A stretch of DNA of 49,910 bases from Arenicellales bacterium. Its GTDB lineage: Bacteria > Pseudomonadota > Gammaproteobacteria > BMS3Bbin11. A program made the position numbers and the translations under genes. The stretch lies in contig JARFQE010000036.1 of the NCBI GenBank assembly GCA_029287915.1, forward strand, positions 1 through 49,910, written 5' to 3'. Under the pieces are notes generated by a model. The model was not told the DNA's origin, ran no database searches, and was given only the letters and a program-made list of their open reading frames with translations. Below, piece by piece: positions 17,556-28,266 of the stretch. The stretch's first letter is position 1; each line of letters starts with the position of its first letter.

Positions 17556-17846
17556 ATGCTTAATCCACACAAACGTTGCCAGGAAACTCGTCGCTTACTA
17601 AATCAAGGGGCTCGGCTGCTGGATGTACGCACTGAAGATGAATACCGCGCCGGTGCATTAGAAGGTGCAATAAACCATCCTGTTCAATGGATCAGTGCGG
17701 GTCACGTTCCGAAAGACAGAAAAACTCCAGTCATTGTATATTGCGTGACCGGCGCCCGCAGTCGTATGGCTAAACAGCTTTTAATGTCAGCTGGCTTCTC
17801 AGAGGTTTACGATCTTGGTAGCTACCAGAACATCCAGGCCTGTTAA
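17556..17846 (+). CDS. Single-domain rhodanese-like sulfurtransferase
   Basis: The 96-residue cytosolic protein is one rhodanese domain. It has LLDVRTEDEYRAGALEGAIN at about 21-40 and the active-site loop CVTGAR with persulfide-forming Cys63. Such proteins carry sulfane sulfur between donors and acceptors or detoxify thiosulfate or cyanide. The loop sequence resembles GlpE/PspE-type short rhodaneses. Its last four bases overlap the stop of the convergent cytochrome gene. A second, different rhodanese is encoded at 21997. Confidence 0.93.
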   Translation: MLNPHKRCQETRRLLNQGARLLDVRTEDEYRAGALEGAINHPVQWISAGHVPKDRKTPVIVYCVTGARSRMAKQLLMSAGFSEVYDLGSYQNIQAC

Positions 17847-20152
17847 TTTTTGGCACCTGATTGATTTAACTGCTGTTGCAGTTGTCTGACCATTGCGTTA
17901 CCTGGCAGTAACTTTGTTAAAGCAGAAACATAGTGCAGTGCTTTTTCTATGTTTCCTATATCACGATTTATGGTCACCAGGGCGTACAATATATCTGTAT
18001 TCCCCGGATGCAAACCATGACTCGCTTCCAGCAATTCTATCGCCTTATCGACGTTGCCCGCCGACTGAAGCCCCAGCGCATAGACATAACTGTAACGAAC
18101 TTCAGCGGGGGCAAGTTCAGCTGCTTTTGATAGATGCTTCAGTGCACCAGGCAAGTCCTTTTGGCGAACCAGTGCCAGACCAAGTGCATGATGCAAACTT
18201 GCATTTTCCGGTACCTGTTTTAAGCCAGCTTTTAATAAACTGATCGCCTCGGCCTCATTTTTCTGTTCACTATATAGCTGCGCCAGATTGACATAAGCGG
18301 GAACGAACTTACTCTGTAATTCAATCGCCTTGCGATAACGTCTTTCAGCCTCTTCCTTGCTGCCCAAATCACTGTATAGGCTACCCAGATTCACCTGTGA
18401 TTCTGGTCTCTCTGCATTAAATAACTGGGTCTCGATATATTCCTCTAAGGCGCTATCGAACATTTCTTGCTGATGCTCCGGTAGATTCCCGGCAGGTATT
18501 GTTGCCAGTAGCCGTGCGGCATGAATCCGTACGCTGCGAACTTCATCATCGAGCAAAGGAAAAGCCAACCGCACACGTTCCCTGATACCGAATGAACTAA
18601 GGGCATCGAGTGCCGCCTGCCTGAGCATTGGGTCCTTACTTTGAATCGCCTGCTGTATTATCGCCATTGTTGCCGGTGTACTATAGCGCCCTGAAAGTCG
18701 AATTGCGGTAGCACGCGCTATCGCTGGTTGACCTGAATCTGTAGCAAGGGAGGTAATCAGTGACTGAGCTGCTGGCAGCTCTTTTTCTGCTGCATTTAAA
18801 GCCGATGCAAATTTCTGATACCCGACCGGCAGTTTGCCATACCAGGATTCGATTTTAGATGCTGCCCATAATGGCGTTTGTTTGCTGTGACAGTTGTTAC
18901 AGGCATTTGGCGTGTTCAGTTTTACACTAAGATCAGGTCGTGGAATACGGAAGCTGTGATCATGCCTCGGGTCAACTTCCATATAGGTCTTTGCCGGCAT
19001 ATGGCACTCGATACAGCTGGAACCTGCTGATCCCTCTTGATGATGGTGATGGCGACTACTCGCATAGACATCTGGCCTGTGACACTGGTAGCAAACCTGT
19101 TCCCCGGGAGCCCGCAATGCGGCACTATGGGGATTATGGCAATCTGAGCATGTGACACCCGCCTGATTCATTTTGCTTTGCAGGAATGAGCCATAGACAT
19201 AAACCTCTTCATTGATCTGCCCATCAGCAAAATAGAGACCATCACTCAGTAGTGCCGGAAGGAAATTATCATATAAGCTTTCACCTGTCTGATTATTTTC
19301 ACTAATCTGGCTGCGTCGTGAGTGACAGACCGCGCATATTTCAATCTCGGTGCTGGTATTTCGAGGTATAGATCTTACAGGCTTAGCTGAATCTGCATCG
19401 ATGTTCCAGGTTATCCCTTTACGCTCATTAAAGCTCGTCACCAGGCCATTATTAGTTGCAGATCTATTTTCACTTTTAGCCCAGTCTACATGGTTATTAC
19501 CAGGGCCGTGACAGGCCTCACAGGAGACATTGATCTCTGACCAGGTTGTATCATAACTGTCATTGGCACTATCGTAATTCTTTTTCAAATTGGTCGAATG
19601 GCACTCGGCACACATGTAATTCCAGTTAAGATTAGGACCTGTCCAGTGCAATACATCGCCTGCAGGAATATGTTCATCGGGGTTGAGACGAAACCATCTC
19701 TGTCCGCCCTTATTTTCAGGGCGGCTGTCCCAGGCAATATCCAGTGCCTGTAATCGGCCACCTGGAAACTCGACAAGATACTGCTGCAGTGGATAAACAC
19801 CAAAGGTATATTTGATCTTGTAGTCATGTGCCTTACCATCGGGACCTACGGTATTTACTATGTAATCATCAGCTTGTTTGGTGAAATAGCTGGTTACACC
19901 ATCATGCTTTAGACTGGCTTTATTAAAATCGGCAAGGACTGTGTCCTTATTAGCCGGTTGCATGGCCATCTCATGATGAGAACCTTTCCATAATTGGGAC
20001 TGTTGCTGATGACAACCTGAACAGACTTTTTCACCGACGTAGGAATTTACCGGCGGCTCATTTGCATGAACAGCTTCAATCATGACAAGCGCAAGCAGAT
20101 CAAGAAAAAGAAAGACAGGCAGGATTTTCCCTGCAAAATAAGATTTTTTCAT
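17843..20152 (-). CDS. Octaheme c-type cytochrome with HEAT and TPR repeats
   Basis: The 769-residue exported protein has a signal peptide (residues 1-30) and eight CxxCH haem-attachment motifs at about 44, 181, 211, 273, 335, 354, 380 and 418. A HEAT-like segment (about 470-560, for example MLRQAALDALSSFG and VRIHAARLLATIP) and five or so TPR units follow (about 590-760). The haem part resembles the tetratricopeptide cytochromes annotated near NrfA/HAO-like octahaem proteins, but I cannot assign a reductase activity. It could be an electron-transfer scaffold in the periplasm. The DUF4124-glutaredoxin gene ends 14 bases upstream on the same strand, so the two are almost certainly one operon. 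Confidence 0.88.
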   Translation of the reverse strand: MKKSYFAGKILPVFLFLDLLALVMIEAVHANEPPVNSYVGEKVCSGCHQQQSQLWKGSHHEMAMQPANKDTVLADFNKASLKHDGVTSYFTKQADDYIVNTVGPDGKAHDYKIKYTFGVYPLQQYLVEFPGGRLQALDIAWDSRPENKGGQRWFRLNPDEHIPAGDVLHWTGPNLNWNYMCAECHSTNLKKNYDSANDSYDTTWSEINVSCEACHGPGNNHVDWAKSENRSATNNGLVTSFNERKGITWNIDADSAKPVRSIPRNTSTEIEICAVCHSRRSQISENNQTGESLYDNFLPALLSDGLYFADGQINEEVYVYGSFLQSKMNQAGVTCSDCHNPHSAALRAPGEQVCYQCHRPDVYASSRHHHHQEGSAGSSCIECHMPAKTYMEVDPRHDHSFRIPRPDLSVKLNTPNACNNCHSKQTPLWAASKIESWYGKLPVGYQKFASALNAAEKELPAAQSLITSLATDSGQPAIARATAIRLSGRYSTPATMAIIQQAIQSKDPMLRQAALDALSSFGIRERVRLAFPLLDDEVRSVRIHAARLLATIPAGNLPEHQQEMFDSALEEYIETQLFNAERPESQVNLGSLYSDLGSKEEAERRYRKAIELQSKFVPAYVNLAQLYSEQKNEAEAISLLKAGLKQVPENASLHHALGLALVRQKDLPGALKHLSKAAELAPAEVRYSYVYALGLQSAGNVDKAIELLEASHGLHPGNTDILYALVTINRDIGNIEKALHYVSALTKLLPGNAMVRQLQQQLNQSGAKN

Positions 20153-20668: not shown

Positions 20669-21730
20669 ATGACTAATAATTCAGACAACAACAGAGAGCG
20701 AAAAGCCGTTGCTCTTGTATCTGGTGGTCTTGATTCCATGCTGGCTGTCAGGCTTATTCAGGAGCAGGGCATCCATGTCGAAGGAATAAATTTTTTTACC
20801 GGCTTCTGTGTAGAAGGTCATACCCATGCCATTCGCAAGAAAGATCGGGACAGGCCCAAGCGTAATAACGCACTCTGGGTTGCCGAACAACTGGGTATAA
20901 AATTACACATTATCGATATCTCTGAAGACTATAAAGACATCGTTATCAATCCTAAGCATGGCTATGGAGCTAATCTAAATCCCTGCCTGGACTGCAAGGG
21001 ATTTATGGTTCATGAAGCCCTCAAATGGATGCAAAAACATGACTTTGATTTCCTCATTACTGGTGAAGTCATGGGACAAAGGCCAATGTCACAACGCAAA
21101 GACACCATGCCGGTAGTCAGCAAGGAGTCCGGTGCCGGTGACCTGTTGCTCCGCCCTCTATGTGCCAGGTTGTTACCTGAAACAAAACCGGAGCAGGAAG
21201 GCTGGGTAGATCGTGATCAGCTGCTCGATATTTCCGGTAGAAATCGCAAACCGCAAATGGCACTGGCTAAAAAATATGGATTTACTGAATACGCACAGCC
21301 TGCCGGTGGCTGCTGTTTTCTAACCGACGCCAACTATTCCTCGAAACTGGCCGACCTGTGGCAGGCACGCGGAGAGAAAACCTATGAGATTGACGATATT
21401 GTCATGCTCAAAGTTGGTCGACATTTACGTCCCAAACCAAGTTTCAAACTAATCATAGCGCGTGAGGAAGGCGAAACCAATTTTCTAAAAGGCTACCGGA
21501 AAAAGTATATAAGCCTGAATACAATCAGCCATAGCGGCCCGATTGCTCTGATTGATGGTGAAACTGATAGTGATGATCTTGAACTTGCTGCCAGGCTTGT
21601 AGCACGTTTCAGTAGCGGTAGAGAATCAGAGTTTGTGAATGTAGAAATAAGACAAAAGAATGGCGAATCTAAGAATATTGATGTCGTTCCATTCAGGGCT
21701 GACGAAATTCCTCAGGACTGGTATGTCTGA
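20669..21730 (+). CDS. PP-loop ATPase, MnmA/ThiI-like tRNA thiouridylase family
   Basis: The 353-residue cytosolic protein has the PP-loop SGGLDS at 18-23, the ATP-binding signature shared by MnmA, ThiI and related adenylating enzymes that thiolate tRNA. Cysteines C106 and C109 (NPCLDCKGFM) match the position of the MnmA catalytic cysteine. TGEVMGQRPMSQR and PAGGCCFLTD (C215, C216) are family-typical of an uncharacterised MnmA/ThiI relative. No THUMP domain is present, so it is not canonical ThiI. The last 8 bases overlap tusA, implying TusA hands over the sulfur. The substrate is not proven: tRNA is likely, another thiolated metabolite is possible. Confidence 0.75.
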   Translation: MTNNSDNNRERKAVALVSGGLDSMLAVRLIQEQGIHVEGINFFTGFCVEGHTHAIRKKDRDRPKRNNALWVAEQLGIKLHIIDISEDYKDIVINPKHGYGANLNPCLDCKGFMVHEALKWMQKHDFDFLITGEVMGQRPMSQRKDTMPVVSKESGAGDLLLRPLCARLLPETKPEQEGWVDRDQLLDISGRNRKPQMALAKKYGFTEYAQPAGGCCFLTDANYSSKLADLWQARGEKTYEIDDIVMLKVGRHLRPKPSFKLIIAREEGETNFLKGYRKKYISLNTISHSGPIALIDGETDSDDLELAARLVARFSSGRESEFVNVEIRQKNGESKNIDVVPFRADEIPQDWYV

Positions 21731-21953
21731 ACAAACACTCGATGCTCGTAACCTGCTATGTCCGTTGCCAGTAATCAAAACGCAGGATAGGGTAGAAAAC
21801 ATGAAGCCCGGCGAATGTCTGAAGATAATTTGCACCGATCATGGTGCGATAAATGATATACCTGCCTGGAGTCGGATATACGGGCACGAAATACTATCGA
21901 TAGATGAGCAGGAATATGAGATAGTAATCAAATTAATAGTGGGTGATAAATAG
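21723..21953 (+). CDS. tusA: Sulfur-carrier protein TusA
   Basis: This 76-residue TusA-family protein has the signature LLCPLPVIKT, with the persulfide cysteine Cys13 in the CPxP motif. The start at 21723 overlaps the upstream PP-loop gene by eight bases. A longer frame from 21660 would add residues inside that gene with no family match. TusA passes persulfide sulfur to thiouridylases and, in sulfur oxidisers, to sulfur-oxidation enzymes. The coupling to a PP-loop thiolase favours a dedicated sulfur relay. The Ala-Ile-Asn-Asp and Trp-Ser segments are as in other TusA proteins. Confidence 0.93.
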   Translation: MSEQTLDARNLLCPLPVIKTQDRVENMKPGECLKIICTDHGAINDIPAWSRIYGHEILSIDEQEYEIVIKLIVGDK

Positions 21954-21996
21954 TATGGCCAGACTCATTGTTATTCTCTGTCTTGACTTAATTACC

Positions 21997-22338
21997 TTAG
22001 TAAACATTAGATACCTGTTCAGGCAAAACAGGTTCATAACCGCTGCGTACCCAGCCAATCATGCCGCCACGGAGATTAATAACATTATCATAGCCATGTT
22101 GGCCAAGAAACATGCAGACCTGTCCTGAGCGAGCACCACTGCGACAGATAAAGACAACCTCTTTATCTTTCGGGATTTCATTCAGGCGCACAGGCACAGT
22201 TGCCATGGGCATTGCTATAGCACCCTGAATAGTGCCCCGGGAAATTTCATGCATTTCACGAACATCAATGATGACCAGGTCGTCATTTTCTTCCATTTTG
22301 GAAACAAGTGTCGGAGAGTCAACTTCTTTTATGAACAT
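21997..22338 (-). CDS. Single-domain rhodanese-like protein
   Basis: The 113-residue protein is one rhodanese domain with LVIIDVREMHE (about 21-31) and the active-site loop CRSGAR (Cys65), then GHDNVINLRGGMIGW-type closing residues. I chose the ATG at 22338; the frame is open to 22428, but that would leave almost no space for the divergent ABC operon promoter and adds no family-like sequence. It could feed persulfide to the nearby TusA. It sits between tusA and the export operon, in opposite orientation to both. Confidence 0.88.
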   Translation of the reverse strand: MFIKEVDSPTLVSKMEENDDLVIIDVREMHEISRGTIQGAIAMPMATVPVRLNEIPKDKEVVFICRSGARSGQVCMFLGQHGYDNVINLRGGMIGWVRSGYEPVLPEQVSNVY

Positions 22339-22462
22339 ACTGGTGGCCCGCATATTGGAAAATAATTGGTTATTATATAAGAACTTACTTATATAATCAA
22401 TGCCTAGTAATTTAGTCAGGTATATCAAACTGATGTGCTTGAAATCAATAAAGTGAAAATTG

Positions 22463-23404
22463 ATGAACGCATTAACAATTCAAAATCTTCATAAACAGTA
22501 TGCCGGTGGCGTCAACGCACTAAAAGGTATCAATCTGGAGGTGGAAGCTGGTGACTTCTTTGCGCTGCTTGGTCCGAATGGTGCGGGAAAATCAACCGCT
22601 ATTGGAATTATCTCATCACTGGTCAGTAAAACCCGTGGCAGTGTATCCGTGTTCGGCCATGATATTGACAGTGACCCGGAATCGGTTAAATCCTGTATTG
22701 GACTGGTACCACAGGAATTTAATTTTGGTGTTTTTGAAAAAGTCTTCAATATTGTTGCCAATCAGGGTGGATATTATGGTCTAAAGCGGGAGCTTGCCAG
22801 GCAGAGAACAGAGAAATACCTGCGTCGACTGGGCCTCTGGGACAAGCGTGATACGGCTTCCCGTAACCTGTCAGGCGGAATGAAAAGACGACTGATGATA
22901 GCCCGCGCACTGGTTCACGAACCTGATATCCTTATTCTTGATGAGCCCACTGCCGGGGTTGATATAGAGATTCGGCGCTCAATGTGGGAGTTTCTGCGTG
23001 AAATCAATGAACAGGGGACTACAATTATCCTTACCACCCACTACCTTGAAGAAGCCGAAAACCTGTGTCGCAATATCGCCATTATTGATCACGGACTGAT
23101 TATGGAAAATACCAGTATGAAAAAACTGCTGGGCCAGCTCAACATGGAGACATTTCTGTTAGATACACGTGAAGCAGTGGATGTAGTGCCTGAGCTTGAT
23201 GGCTATTCACTGCTCAAGGTTGATGCTCATACACTGTCGGTAGATGTTGCCAAAGAGAATGCGCTCAATTCCTTATTCACACAGTTATCCGGTCATGGCA
23301 TAACCATCATCAGTCTGCGCAACAAGACCAACAGGCTGGAGGAGTTGTTTATGGGTATGGTGAATGAAAACAAAAAACCTGATGCACAGGCAAGGCAAAG
23401 CTGA
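22463..23404 (+). CDS. ABC transporter ATP-binding protein (YadG-like exporter type)
   Basis: The 313-residue ATPase has Walker [10 protein letters not shown] near residue 38, the Q-loop LVPQEF near 85, signature LSGGM near 138, Walker B LILDEP near 160 and the switch TTHYLEEAE. The C-terminal 90 residues are the extra domain found in ABC-2 exporter ATPases. I start at the ATG at 22463; a TTG directly before it is an alternative. It opens a plus-strand operon and its stop abuts the RND gene with no gap. The permease partner is encoded two genes later (25990), so the RND gene is inserted between the two ABC subunits. Confidence 0.95.
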
Positions 23405-25921
23405 ATGCAAAAGACGCTAATCAAGCTTTATGAGTCTCTGGTACTTAACAGACCCTGGCTAACGCTGGCCCTGTTAAGCATCCTGGTAGTTCCCGTTGCT
23501 TACTATAGCAAGGACTTCAGGCTCGATGCCTCTGCAGATACACTGGTGCTCGAGAATGATGCTGCTTTGCGTTATTACCGCTCTATTACTGCGCGTTATG
23601 GTTCTGAAGACTATCTCGTCATTACCTACACACCGACTAAAGGACTTTTCAGCAAAACCACGCTTGCCGATCTGGCCGAATTAAAACAACAGTTAAAGGA
23701 AATTGATCGAGTAGACAGCGTAACAACTATCCTTGATGTGCCACTAATCAACTCACCTCCTGTCACCTTATCAGAACTGAGTAAAAACATACGAACGCTG
23801 GAATCAGATGACTGTATTCCTGGTCTGGCCAGAAAAGAACTGACGACCAGCCCATTTTATAGCAATCTGATTATCAGCCCTGATGGCCACACTACAGCAC
23901 TGCAAATTAAACTTCGTCGTGAAGAAAAATGGCATGAGCTTTTTCAGCGGCGTAACGCTTTACGCATACAGCGGATGGAAAATACCCTGTCTCCAGAACA
24001 GGCGATTGAACTGGCGCAGGTGACGAAAAAATTTGATGATTATAGCGATAGCCTGCTGAAGCAGGAGCACGATGACATCCAGAAGATCCGCCAAATCATG
24101 GATGACCACCGTGATTCGGCAAAACTTTTCCTCGGTGGTGTACCGATGATTGTCTCTGACTCGATGGATTACGTCAGGAATGACCTGAAGGTGTTCGGTC
24201 TGGCTGTGCTGGGATTGCTGATCATTTTTCTATTTACCGCATTTCGTAAACCTCACTGGGTCTACCTGCCTGTGCTTACCTGTGGTGTCACTGGAATCTT
24301 CATGCTAGGGGTGCTCGGTGTGCTGGGCTGGCGAGTCACCGTAGTGTCATCAAATTTCGTCTCCCTGCTACTGATCATTACCATGTCACTAACAGTACAT
24401 CTTATTGTCCGTTATCGTGAACTACATGCTGCAAATCCGGATAACGATCAGTACTGGCTGGTAAGTCAAACAATTCGCAGTAAATTCTTACCCAGTTTTT
24501 ATACGGCGATTACAACTATGGTGGCCTTTGCCTCGCTGATCTTCAGCGATATACGACCCGTCATAGATTTCGGCTGGATGATGTTCATCGGTATTGCAGT
24601 GGCCTTCTTTTTCACCTTCACACTGTTCCCTGCCAGCCTGATGTTACTGAAGGCCGGCAAGCCTGGAAAGCTTCACGACATCACCGGCATCCTTACCCGC
24701 TACCTCGCAAACCTGATTGAACATAGAAAGCTTTGCGTTCTACTTGCAGCACTGATACTTGCCCTGCTGAGTATATTTGGTATTTCAAAACTGACAGTTG
24801 AAAACAGTTTTATCAGCTACTTTAAATCTTCGACCGAAATCCACCAGGGCATGAAACTCATCGATCTGGAGCTCGGGGGTACTACGCCACTGGATGTTAT
24901 CGTCGATGCGCCAAAAAGTTTTTATGAGGAAATTGAAGAAAACACGAAAGCAGACGTGGATGATTACGCTGATAGTTACCTGCATGATTACCCTGATCAG
25001 GGAGAAAGCGGAATCGCGGGATCAAGCTTCTGGTTTAATACATATATGCTGGAGGAAGTCGATAAAATTCACAGTTACCTCGATAGTCTACCGGAGACTG
25101 GCAAGGTACTGTCGATCAGTACTTCCATGCGAATGCTTCAACAATTGAAAGATGGTAAAAACCTGGATGACTTCTTCCTCTCAGTTCTGTTCAGTCGATT
25201 ACCCGATACGGTAAAACAAAGCCTGTTTACCCCCTATATGTCAGAAGATGGTAATCAACTACGTTTCAGTGCACGTATTATCGATTCTGACCCTGAACTA
25301 AAGCGCGCTGAACTGCTGTCGAGTATTGAAAAACACCTGATAGAGGATATGGGTTTTCAACCAGAGCAGATCCACTTGAGCGGCATGCTGGTGCTGTATA
25401 ACAACATGTTGCAAAGCCTGTTCAGCTCGCAGATCAAGACTTTGGGAGCGGTCTTTTTTGCCATACTGCTGATGTTCATCGTACTGTTTCGTTCATTAAA
25501 ATTCGCAGTACTGGCGATAATCCCGAATATCCTTTCGGCAGCAATGGTGCTTGGGCTTATGGGCGTGTTAGGTATCCCTCTTGATATTATGACAATTACT
25601 ATTGCTGCGATCACTATCGGTATTGCTGTTGATGACACTATCCACTATGTTCACCGCTTCCAGGAGGAATACTGGCAGGATAAAAACTACTGGTATGCCA
25701 TTATGCGCTGCCATAACAGCATTGGACGTGCAATGTATTACACTTCGGTAATTATTACAGTCGGCTTTTCCATTCTTGCTCTGTCGAACTTTATTCCGAC
25801 AATCTATTTTGGTCTGCTCACTGGTGCCGCCATGATTACTGCACTAATCGCAAACCTGACTCTTCTACCTTTATTGATAGCCATAGTCAGACCAATGGGA
25901 AAAACAGCTATTGCACACTAA
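23405..25921 (+). CDS. RND superfamily (MMPL/HpnN-type) transporter
   Basis: The 838-residue protein has the RND layout of two halves. In each, one N-terminal helix (about 18-32 and 437-456) is followed by a large extracytoplasmic domain and then a bundle of about five helices. The second bundle contains GIAVDDTIHYVHRFQEEY, a family signature with the paired aspartates of the proton path. The length and absence of a third partner suit the MMPL/HpnN class, whose members move lipids or other hydrophobic molecules between membranes. It is translationally adjacent to the ABC ATPase (TGA directly followed by ATG). The cargo is unknown. Confidence 0.92.
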   Translation: MQKTLIKLYESLVLNRPWLTLALLSILVVPVAYYSKDFRLDASADTLVLENDAALRYYRSITARYGSEDYLVITYTPTKGLFSKTTLADLAELKQQLKEIDRVDSVTTILDVPLINSPPVTLSELSKNIRTLESDDCIPGLARKELTTSPFYSNLIISPDGHTTALQIKLRREEKWHELFQRRNALRIQRMENTLSPEQAIELAQVTKKFDDYSDSLLKQEHDDIQKIRQIMDDHRDSAKLFLGGVPMIVSDSMDYVRNDLKVFGLAVLGLLIIFLFTAFRKPHWVYLPVLTCGVTGIFMLGVLGVLGWRVTVVSSNFVSLLLIITMSLTVHLIVRYRELHAANPDNDQYWLVSQTIRSKFLPSFYTAITTMVAFASLIFSDIRPVIDFGWMMFIGIAVAFFFTFTLFPASLMLLKAGKPGKLHDITGILTRYLANLIEHRKLCVLLAALILALLSIFGISKLTVENSFISYFKSSTEIHQGMKLIDLELGGTTPLDVIVDAPKSFYEEIEENTKADVDDYADSYLHDYPDQGESGIAGSSFWFNTYMLEEVDKIHSYLDSLPETGKVLSISTSMRMLQQLKDGKNLDDFFLSVLFSRLPDTVKQSLFTPYMSEDGNQLRFSARIIDSDPELKRAELLSSIEKHLIEDMGFQPEQIHLSGMLVLYNNMLQSLFSSQIKTLGAVFFAILLMFIVLFRSLKFAVLAIIPNILSAAMVLGLMGVLGIPLDIMTITIAAITIGIAVDDTIHYVHRFQEEYWQDKNYWYAIMRCHNSIGRAMYYTSVIITVGFSILALSNFIPTIYFGLLTGAAMITALIANLTLLPLLIAIVRPMGKTAIAH

Positions 25922-25989
25922 CTAAGTGTCTGGTTATAGATAAAACAGAATGCCTGAAACATTAACTATTGAATCAGCCCGATTATGAT

Positions 25990-26763
25990 ATGAGTAATAC
26001 AGTCCGATATACTGCATATAAAACGATCGTTACCCGTGAAATCACACGTTTTATGCGAATCTGGCCGCAAACTATCCTGCCACCAGCGATTACAATGTCT
26101 CTTTATTTCATCATTTTCGGTAGCCTGATAGGAAAACGCATTGGCACCATGGATGGCTTTAGCTACATGGAGTTCATCGTCCCGGGATTGATTATGATGT
26201 CCGTTATTACCAGTTCCTATGCCAATGTCGTGTCATCATTTTTCAGTATGAAATTTCAACACTCTATTGAAGAGATTCTGATCGCACCGGTTCCCAATTA
26301 CGTTATCCTCGCAGGTTTTGTCAGTGGTGGAGTGGCGAGAGGTCTACTTGTTGGACTGATTGTTACCATCATATCAATCATATTCACCGGACTGTCTATA
26401 GATAACTATCTCATAACCAGCTCTGTAATTCTTATGACGGCTATTTTATTTTCCCTGGCCGGCATGATTAATGCTGTGTTTGCGCGTAATTTTGATGATA
26501 TTTCAATCATACCCACTTTTGTACTAACCCCTTTGACCTACCTCGGCGGTGTCTTTTACTCTATCAAGTTATTACCCGAATTCTGGCAAAATGTATCATT
26601 AAGCAACCCGATTCTACACATGGTCAATGCCTTTCGTTATGGCGTCCTGGGTCAGTCTGATCTAAACATTTCCTATGCATTCATTATCATATTCGGCTTT
26701 ATCATTGTGTTGGTCGCCTGTACGCTATATTTGCTAAAGAAAGGGGTAGGTATACGTAGCTAA
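25990..26763 (+). CDS. ABC-2 type transporter permease (YadH-like)
   Basis: The roughly 257-residue integral membrane protein has six helices and the ABC-2 signatures FIVPGLIMMSVI and LTYLGGVFYSIKLLP, plus PILHMVNAFRYG near the end. It is the membrane partner of the ATPase encoded at 22463, together an exporter like YadG/YadH. An upstream in-frame TTG at 25969 could extend it by seven residues, and neither start has a strong ribosome binding site. Its position after the RND gene and before a radical SAM gene suggests that the transporter and the enzyme serve one pathway. Confidence 0.93.
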   Translation: MSNTVRYTAYKTIVTREITRFMRIWPQTILPPAITMSLYFIIFGSLIGKRIGTMDGFSYMEFIVPGLIMMSVITSSYANVVSSFFSMKFQHSIEEILIAPVPNYVILAGFVSGGVARGLLVGLIVTIISIIFTGLSIDNYLITSSVILMTAILFSLAGMINAVFARNFDDISIIPTFVLTPLTYLGGVFYSIKLLPEFWQNVSLSNPILHMVNAFRYGVLGQSDLNISYAFIIIFGFIIVLVACTLYLLKKGVGIRS

Positions 26764-26781: not shown

Positions 26782-28266
26782 ATGAAAAATAACTGCACTA
26801 CAACTTGCTCTCGACAGGCAACAGACAAAGCTTATTCAAATCAGCACAAATCCGATCAGAATTTGCCTGATAAAAAAAGAATAGTTTTCATTAGCCCCTA
26901 TGACCTTGGCCGCCAGCCGTTTGCGCTGGCCGAACCCTCTGCCATATTTACCAGGGCAGGTTATGATGCCAAATGTCTTGATTTATCACAGCAAAAACTG
27001 ACAGATGATTTACTGGCACCAGCAAGTGTGGTTTTTATTTACCTCAGTATGCTGACAGCGACACGTATCGCAGTCGAAGCAATGCCACGCATTATAAAAA
27101 TGGCACCACTAGCAAGAATTGCGGTATTTGGCTGGTATGCACCGGTCAATGAAAAATTTCTGCGAGAACTGGGTGTTGATGCTGTGTTTGGTGGTGAGGC
27201 TGAAGATGACATGCTTGACTATGCTCGCTCTATTGTTGATCGTGACGATCATCCTGCACGAAATAAAACAGTGGTCAATCTGGGGCGTATTGACTTTATG
27301 GTACCTGATCGACAGTCGCTACCGGCTCTGGATAAGTATTCCCATCTCGTGTTGCCGGACGATAGCAGAAGAATCATGGGATTTACTGAAACCACTCGTG
27401 GCTGCAAGCACCTTTGTCGTCATTGCCCGGTGGTACCGGTTTACAGGGGCCGCTTCTATGCGATACCTGCTGATATAGTGCTGAAAGATATCCGTCAGCA
27501 GGTAACACAGGGTGCCCAACACATTTCATTTGGCGACCCGGATTTCCTCAATGGACCTGGCCATGCAAGGCGTATCATAGAGGCCATGCATGAGGAATTT
27601 CCATCATTGACATATGATGCAGTCATCAAGATCGAACATCTGCTGAAGCACCGTGATTTACTACCTTATCTTCGTGATACGGGGTGCATTCTGGTTACCA
27701 CGGCGGTGGAATCTGTCGATGACAAAATCCTCGAGCATCTCGATAAAGGCCATACTGCTGCAGGGTTTGAAGAGGTAGTCCAACTGATGTCTGAAAATGG
27801 TATAGCGCTGGCACCCACATTCATCCCCTTTACTCCGTGGACTACCATCATAAACTACATAGAATTACTGGAAAAGATTGCTGAGCTTAAACTGATCATG
27901 AGCGTCAATCCGGTACAACTTTCCCTGCGCCTGTTGATCCCCAGCGGCTCGCGGATACTAGAACTGCCGAAAGAGGAAACCTGTATCACCGGCTTCAACC
28001 CTGCATCACTGGGATATTCCTGGGTACACCGAGATCAGGAGGTAGATACGCTGCAGGAAAACATCCGACTGTGGACTGAAAAAGCAGAAAGCCAGGGACT
28101 TGATCGACTGCAGATCTTCAACGGCATTCGCCGCATTGCACTGAAGGCTGCCGGTAGAGACGATTTAGATGTCACAAAGGAGCAATGTGGAGACTCTGTT
28201 CCGGTGCACTCAGAATCATGGTACTGCTGCGCAGAACCCACTGAACAACAACTTGTCAGCTTCTAA
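26782..28266 (+). CDS. B12-binding-like/radical SAM protein with CCAEP tail
   Basis: The 494-residue protein has an N-terminal Rossmann-like B12-binding-type domain (about 32-150). A radical SAM domain follows, whose 4Fe-4S cluster cysteines are C208, C212 and C215 (RGCKHLCRHCP), with GDPDFLNG and the late AVESVDD typical of the barrel. The DxHxxG cobalamin-ligand motif is absent, so the N-terminal domain may bind no B12 or bind it base-on. The C-terminus reads YCCAEPTEQQ (C482, C483). I recall that this matches a family named for a CUAEP/CCAEP tail, in which some members have selenocysteine; here both codons are TGC. The reaction is unknown. It follows the ABC permease by 18 bases. Confidence 0.85.
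   Translation: MKNNCTTTCSRQATDKAYSNQHKSDQNLPDKKRIVFISPYDLGRQPFALAEPSAIFTRAGYDAKCLDLSQQKLTDDLLAPASVVFIYLSMLTATRIAVEAMPRIIKMAPLARIAVFGWYAPVNEKFLRELGVDAVFGGEAEDDMLDYARSIVDRDDHPARNKTVVNLGRIDFMVPDRQSLPALDKYSHLVLPDDSRRIMGFTETTRGCKHLCRHCPVVPVYRGRFYAIPADIVLKDIRQQVTQGAQHISFGDPDFLNGPGHARRIIEAMHEEFPSLTYDAVIKIEHLLKHRDLLPYLRDTGCILVTTAVESVDDKILEHLDKGHTAAGFEEVVQLMSENGIALAPTFIPFTPWTTIINYIELLEKIAELKLIMSVNPVQLSLRLLIPSGSRILELPKEETCITGFNPASLGYSWVHRDQEVDTLQENIRLWTEKAESQGLDRLQIFNGIRRIALKAAGRDDLDVTKEQCGDSVPVHSESWYCCAEPTEQQLVSF

What the first reader, a model, noticed from the sequence alone, without database searches (positions are those of the whole stretch)
26782..28266. Radical SAM protein with Cys-Cys-Ala-Glu-Pro tail and without the DxHxxG cobalamin motif
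The final residues carry CCAEP (C482, C483), which I recall as a family-defining C-terminal tail in which a Cys can be selenocysteine. Here both codons are TGC (28225-28230). The N-terminal B12-like domain lacks the DxHxxG histidine. A vicinal Cys pair at a C-terminus suggests a redox or metal site that could serve the active site. The reaction is unknown.
Basis: partly seen in the sequence, partly recalled or inferred. Interest (0 to 1): 0.6.

Follow-up and report, generated by a model that had tools for sequence, protein, structure and literature searches.

The report
CCAEP-tail radical SAM enzyme, ArsL relative
This gene encodes a radical enzyme of a known but functionally unassigned family whose last residues carry an invariant Cys-Cys (or Cys-selenocysteine) pair; its nearest characterised relative makes the arsenic antibiotic arsinothricin, and across distant microbes it travels with a dipeptide-forming ligase and an iron-sulfur carrier, which makes its function testable.

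Summary
ORF 26782-28266 (+, 494 aa) is a radical SAM protein with CX3CX2C (C208/C212/C215) and a WYCCAEP tail (C482/C483, both TGC). It belongs to NCBIfam NF040546, CUAEP/CCAEP-tail radical SAM (seleno)protein (584.8 bits, cutoff 500). The tail is an invariant island in homologues 31-82% identical from Proteobacteria, Euryarchaeota, actinobacteria and Thermomicrobium. Sec replaces only the second Cys, in 15 of 48 loci: 14 of 15 carry a six-pair or longer hairpin after TGA, and all 14 Sec genomes checked show SelB (one in fragments). No DxHxxG occurs anywhere in the family. The nearest solved fold is AprD4, then cobalamin enzymes.

New here: the only other family matching every member is ArsL, the arsinothricin enzyme that transfers SAM's aminocarboxypropyl group to As(III); its tail is also CC. 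The gene co-occurs with an ATP-grasp L-amino-acid ligase (37/40 carriers, 5/38 non-carriers). That ligase nearly always sits beside an Fe-S carrier (Nfu-like or A-type). In this genome the ligase is on another contig.

Best reading: a radical SAM enzyme that builds an unusual amino acid by ArsL-like chemistry, the tail presenting a soft acceptor, which the ligase turns into a dipeptide. Chemistry and substrate are inferred. Arsenic itself lacks contextual support.

The parts
26782..28266 (+). CCAEP-tail radical SAM protein, 494 aa
   Evidence: NF040546 584.8 bits
26782..26877 (+). lineage-specific disordered N-terminal extension (residues 1-32) with Cys residues; homologues outside this lineage start near residue 33
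   Evidence: (pLDDT under 50)
26878..27351 (+). N-terminal Rossmann (B12-like) domain without DxHxxG
27403..27426 (+). CX3CX2C cluster motif C208/C212/C215, with an invariant His at the usually aromatic position (CX3CXHC)
28201..28239 (+). conserved C-terminal tail, residues 474-486 (P...E.W.CC.EP)
28225..28230 (+). vicinal Cys codons TGC TGC (C482, C483); the second is TGA (Sec) in 15 of 48 loci
22460..26763 (+). ABC ATPase, MMPL/RND transporter and ABC-2 permease directly upstream (19-nt gap); present in two related loci but not in other lineages, so not shown to be part of the system

Best explanation
An anaerobic-type radical SAM enzyme that makes an unusual amino acid for a dedicated ATP-grasp L-amino-acid ligase. 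By analogy with its closest characterised relative ArsL, it most likely cleaves SAM to an aminocarboxypropyl (ACP) radical and joins that group to a soft element (sulfur, selenium, arsenic or another metalloid). The invariant Cys-Cys or Cys-Sec pair on the C-terminal tail would hold that acceptor and swing it over the cluster-bound SAM. The ligase then couples the new amino acid to another amino acid, and the co-conserved Fe-S carrier (Nfu-like, or A-type here) loads or repairs the enzyme's cluster. Shown: family, tail, Sec/Cys exchange, relation to ArsL, co-occurrence with the ligase, ligase-carrier linkage. Inferred: ACP chemistry, acceptor binding by the tail, dipeptide product.
For: ArsL (NF040542) is the only other NCBIfam family that matches all 34 members at E under 1e-20; 31% identity over 404 residues, E 8e-68. 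In a 13-sequence alignment, 36 columns are invariant across both families, including E203, H247, D252, D254, D279, H286, E310, K322 and W353 as well as the tail CC. ArsL was proposed to transfer ACP from SAM to As(III) (PMC8552651), and a 2025 review states that this step is radical SAM catalysed (PMC12159101). The ligase (strong match, E at most 1e-40) is present in 37 of 40 genomes with the enzyme and 5 of 38 without, Fisher 4e-13 uncorrected for kinship. Its best solved homologue is L-amino-acid ligase BL00235 (224 bits), which makes Met-Gly (PMC6920838). Nfu-like, ligase and enzyme genes adjoin in three different orders in Euryarchaeota, Alphaproteobacteria and actinobacteria. Three of four ArsL plasmid loci inspected also carry an ATP-grasp gene of the same superfamily.
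Against: The loci lack the other arsinothricin genes and ArsL-type ArsM does not co-occur. The tail is CCAEP, not RCCLKC, and lies about 50 residues further on, so the two CC pairs may not be homologous; the alignment placed them together. Active-site positions differ (M90 to L, T92 to D, H214 to Y, P216 to S, P387 to Y), so acceptor or chemistry may differ. Four actinobacterial genomes keep the ligase-carrier pair without the enzyme. The tail-to-cluster distance is unmeasured.
Confidence: 0.42

Rival explanations
1. The tail Cys pair helps bind an auxiliary Fe-S cluster that is sacrificed for sulfur, as in lipoyl synthase; the co-conserved Nfu-like or A-type carrier rebuilds it. The product is a thiolated amino acid joined by the ligase into a low-molecular-weight thiol dipeptide.
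For: The ligase gene is adjacent to an Nfu-like carrier gene in 11 of 11 actinobacterial loci away from the enzyme (7 in genomes with it, 4 without) and to a divergent extra A-type carrier in 4 of 4 gammaproteobacterial loci. NfuA is known to repair lipoyl synthase (own knowledge).
Against: Only two conserved Cys in the tail and no further invariant Cys outside the CX3CX2C motif; Sec is unusual as a ligand of a sacrificial cluster; the carrier link is with the ligase more than with the enzyme.
Confidence: 0.18
2. The Cys-Cys/Cys-Sec pair is a thiol-disulfide (selenenylsulfide) redox arm that reduces a substrate, product or cluster after each turnover, like the C-terminal Cys tail of ribonucleotide reductase, without binding the acceptor.
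For: C-terminal position, vicinal arrangement, repeated Cys/Sec exchange (8 changes on the tree, at least 5 forced by well-supported branches), modest model confidence at CC.
Against: Flanking P, E, W, E and P are invariant too, more than a generic redox tail needs; no reductase partner found.
Confidence: 0.2
3. It is a dedicated arsenic enzyme making an arsinothricin-like C-As amino acid.
For: ArsL homology; CC pairs suit As(III); ArsS, the other radical SAM enzyme named in the review as C-As forming (PMC12159101), belongs by own knowledge to TIGR04167, a selenoprotein family listed in PMC13188914.
Against: No ars genes among the recurrent neighbours; ArsL-type ArsM strong matches only in two genomes that lack the enzyme; retained in some genomes of about 1 Mb.
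Confidence: 0.12
4. A cobalamin-dependent radical SAM methyltransferase that binds B12 without the His ligand.
For: Fold matches OxsB, MgmA and TsrM at Z 24-26.
Against: No Pfam B12-binding match, no DxHxxG in any homologue; the top fold match is AprD4 (Z 27.5).
Confidence: 0.08

Closest known systems
NCBIfam NF040546, CUAEP/CCAEP-tail radical SAM (seleno)protein
   Same: Score above curated cutoff, full length, same tail, CX3CX2C.
   Different: Nothing essential; Cys form, in a genome with no SelB above cutoff. The family has no assigned function that I could find.
ArsL (NF040542), arsinothricin biosynthesis radical SAM protein
   Same: 31% identity over about 400 residues, shared invariant polar residues, CC in the C-terminal tail, ATP-grasp partner in several loci.
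   Different: Tail CCAEP instead of RCCLKC, about 50 extra residues before it, below the ArsL cutoff (240 vs 450 bits), no ars operon.
AprD4 radical SAM diol dehydratase (PDB 6fd2)
   Same: Best fold match: Rossmann-like domain plus radical SAM barrel (Z 27.5, 408 residues).
   Different: 15% identity, sugar substrate; no CCAEP-type tail match reported (alignment ends at residue 460).
PylB/PylC of pyrrolysine biosynthesis (functional analogy, from own knowledge)
   Same: Radical SAM enzyme makes an unusual amino acid; ATP-grasp ligase joins it to another amino acid.
   Different: Different radical SAM family and chemistry.

Membership tests
NF040546 CUAEP/CCAEP-tail radical SAM (seleno)protein | score over curated cutoff, full length | tested here: met
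   584.8 vs 500 bits, profile 1-466 of 468
NF040546 CUAEP/CCAEP-tail radical SAM (seleno)protein | C-terminal CUAEP or CCAEP motif | tested here: met
   C482 C483 A E P; invariant Cys pair in 34-row alignment
NF040546 CUAEP/CCAEP-tail radical SAM (seleno)protein | CX3CX2C radical SAM motif and Pfam Radical_SAM | tested here: met
   C208/C212/C215; PF04055 E 2e-12
ArsL (NF040542) | score over curated cutoff | tested here: not met
   240.1 vs 450 bits
ArsL (NF040542) | RCCLKC tail | tested here: not met
   tail is WYCCAEP
ArsL (NF040542) | arsenic operon context (arsM, transporter, ArsR) | tested here: not met
   none in the examined stretch nor among recurrent neighbours; ArsL-type ArsM absent from carriers
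ArsL (NF040542) | ACP transfer to As(III) | not testable with these tools
   needs enzyme assay
cobalamin-binding radical SAM (class B) | B12-binding domain profile match | tested here: not met
   no Pfam B12-binding hit at E up to 0.1
cobalamin-binding radical SAM (class B) | DxHxxG lower-ligand motif | tested here: not met
   absent in all 34 homologues; not required by every B12 radical SAM enzyme (own knowledge)
cobalamin-binding radical SAM (class B) | fold of Rossmann plus radical SAM barrel | tested here: inconclusive
   Z 24-26 to OxsB, MgmA and TsrM, but 27.5 to AprD4; a shared fold does not show B12 binding
selenoprotein form of the family | in-frame TGA, downstream hairpin, SelB in genome | tested here: met
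   for 15 relatives, not for this gene: hairpin of six or more pairs in 14/15 (13 in the same register) vs 4/33 Cys genes; SelB over cutoff in 13/14 and split in the 14th, vs 9/26
selenoprotein form of the family | TGA at position 483 in this gene | tested here: not met
   TGC; no SelB above cutoff in own genome

The most novel reading that the evidence does not exclude
A widespread, unrecognised biosynthetic pathway (radical SAM enzyme, L-amino-acid ligase, dedicated Fe-S carrier) that makes a small dipeptide containing an ACP-derived amino acid bonded to selenium, sulfur or a metalloid, used for metal or redox handling by aerobic bacteria and archaea, including genomes of about 1 Mb.
Probability: 0.25. 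Interest if true: 0.85.

Novelty: new member of a known kind. Interest (0 to 1): 0.5.

Why it matters
The family has a name but I found no function for it. Placing it beside ArsL, with a ligase that co-occurs almost obligatorily and an Fe-S carrier, turns an orphan radical SAM selenoprotein family into a pathway with a testable product class. If the tail presents a soft element to a SAM-derived radical, it would extend C-As bond chemistry to a wider set of elements, and natural Cys/Sec pairs offer ready-made comparisons.

Tried and rejected
Arsenic by context: ArsL-type ArsM and recurrent neighbours gave no support. Transporter partnership: the ABC/MMPL genes upstream recur only in the window's own lineage, so not taken as part of the system. 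Literature: no held paper contains CUAEP or CCAEP; the two selenoprotein-neighbourhood papers by Haft are not held, so a prior description there cannot be excluded. Only chains that Foldseek ranked were re-aligned, so absence of other folds says nothing. Greedy ORF calling in GC-rich loci is error-prone; gene linkage was therefore repeated with profile searches. Thermodynamic z-scores did not separate Sec from Cys genes; the fixed-register hairpin test did.

Full report
Observation. ORF 26782-28266 (+) encodes 494 aa with CX3CX2C at C208/C212/C215 and the tail SESWYCCAEP, C482/C483 both TGC at 28225-28230. It scores 584.8 bits against NF040546, CUAEP/CCAEP-tail radical SAM (seleno)protein, cutoff 500; Pfam gives Radical_SAM only. 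In 34 homologues, 31-82% identical to it, P474, E478, W480, C482, C483, E485 and P486 are invariant while residues 425-473 hold no invariant column; no homologue has DxHxxG.

Sec. TGA replaces the second Cys in 15 of 48 distinct loci, never the first. A hairpin of at least six pairs follows the codon in 14 of 15 Sec genes against 4 of 33 Cys genes; in 13 of those 14 it has the same register and five-base loop. SelB is over cutoff in 13 of 14 Sec genomes and split over two contigs in the last, against 9 of 26 Cys genomes; the window's genome has no SelB above cutoff. On a tree the Sec label needs 8 changes, at least 5 forced by well-supported branches. So Cys and Sec are exchanged repeatedly, as expected of a chemically used residue (inference).

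Distribution. All seven genomes of the window's genus that were searched, and one more of its family, carry the gene, but only 1 of 398 genomes sampled across the phylum (the window's own); it is in 102 of 296 genomes of an actinobacterial class and 5 of 119 of a euryarchaeal class. Thermomicrobium roseum has an annotated copy with TGA.

Closest relative. The only other NCBIfam family matching all 34 members at E under 1e-20 is ArsL; pairwise 31% over 404 residues, E 8e-68. In a 13-sequence alignment 36 columns are invariant across both families, among them polar residues likely to line the active site, and the tail CC, while Y40, M90, T92, H214, P216 and P387 among others switch. ArsL was proposed to transfer the aminocarboxypropyl group of SAM to As(III) (PMC8552651); a 2025 review states that this step is radical SAM catalysed (PMC12159101). 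Membership in ArsL fails on score, tail and context, so this is a sister family, not ArsL.

Pathway. Neighbourhood clustering found an ATP-grasp protein and an Nfu-like Fe-S carrier next to the enzyme: Nfu (divergent), ligase, enzyme in actinobacteria; enzyme, Nfu, ligase in Euryarchaeota; Nfu, enzyme, ligase in an alphaproteobacterium. Of 48 loci, 17 show both partners and 5 more one of them (counted by hand). The ligase's best solved relative is BL00235 (224 bits), which makes Met-Gly (PMC6920838). A strong ligase match is present in 37 of 40 genomes with the enzyme and 5 of 38 without (the p-value ignores kinship, and the three misses include small or incomplete genomes). In the window's genome it lies on another contig (G000:C93:72186-73406, 460 bits), preceded by a divergent A-type carrier and an Fe(2+)-trafficking gene; that genome has two standard A-type genes elsewhere. 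The ligase-carrier pair persists in four actinobacterial genomes that lack the enzyme, so the pair may have a role of its own. Three of four ArsL plasmid loci inspected also carry an ATP-grasp gene of the same superfamily.

Structure. AlphaFold2 gives mean pLDDT 90.1 (494 aa) and 92.0 for a relative; the tail is modelled back onto the protein to the Trp with pLDDT 89-93 and with 70-76 at the Cys pair. Best fold matches: AprD4 (Z 27.5), OxsB 26.0, MgmA 25.9, TsrM 24.7, MiaB 23.8.

Mechanism. I favour ArsL-like chemistry: radical cleavage of SAM, group transfer to a soft element held by the Cys-Cys/Cys-Sec tail, then ligation into a dipeptide. The identity of the element is open; arsenic has homology but no context in its favour. 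Rivals are a sacrificial auxiliary cluster, a redox tail and a cobalamin enzyme.

Verdict. A real, well-conserved feature of an already named family; the protein itself is an ordinary member. What is added is the relation to ArsL, the obligate-looking ligase partner, the Fe-S carrier and evidence that the TGA forms are genuine Sec. I found no paper assigning a function, but two relevant papers could not be read.

Noticed in passing
window 26782-26877: Disordered N-terminal extension with Cys residues (for example MKNNCTTTCS, MNKCCTTQCS) found in the window's lineage only; an alternative start near residue 33 is possible.
   Followed up: partly
window 27403-27426: CX3CXHC: an invariant His at the position that is usually aromatic in radical SAM motifs; Tyr in ArsL.
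   Followed up: partly
window 22460-26763: ABC ATPase, MMPL/RND protein and ABC-2 permease in one run upstream of the enzyme, conserved in related loci only.
   Followed up: partly
window 20669-22428: MnmA/ThiI-like protein with an NFACT RNA-binding domain, overlapping a TusA gene, with a rhodanese gene on the opposite strand: a possible sulfur-relay set.
   Followed up: no
window 17843-20152: 769-aa ORF on the minus strand with several CxxCH haem motifs and a C-terminal part that looks like TPR repeats.
   Followed up: no
L132-L135: Four actinobacterial genomes keep the ligase and Nfu-like pair without the CCAEP enzyme.
   Followed up: partly
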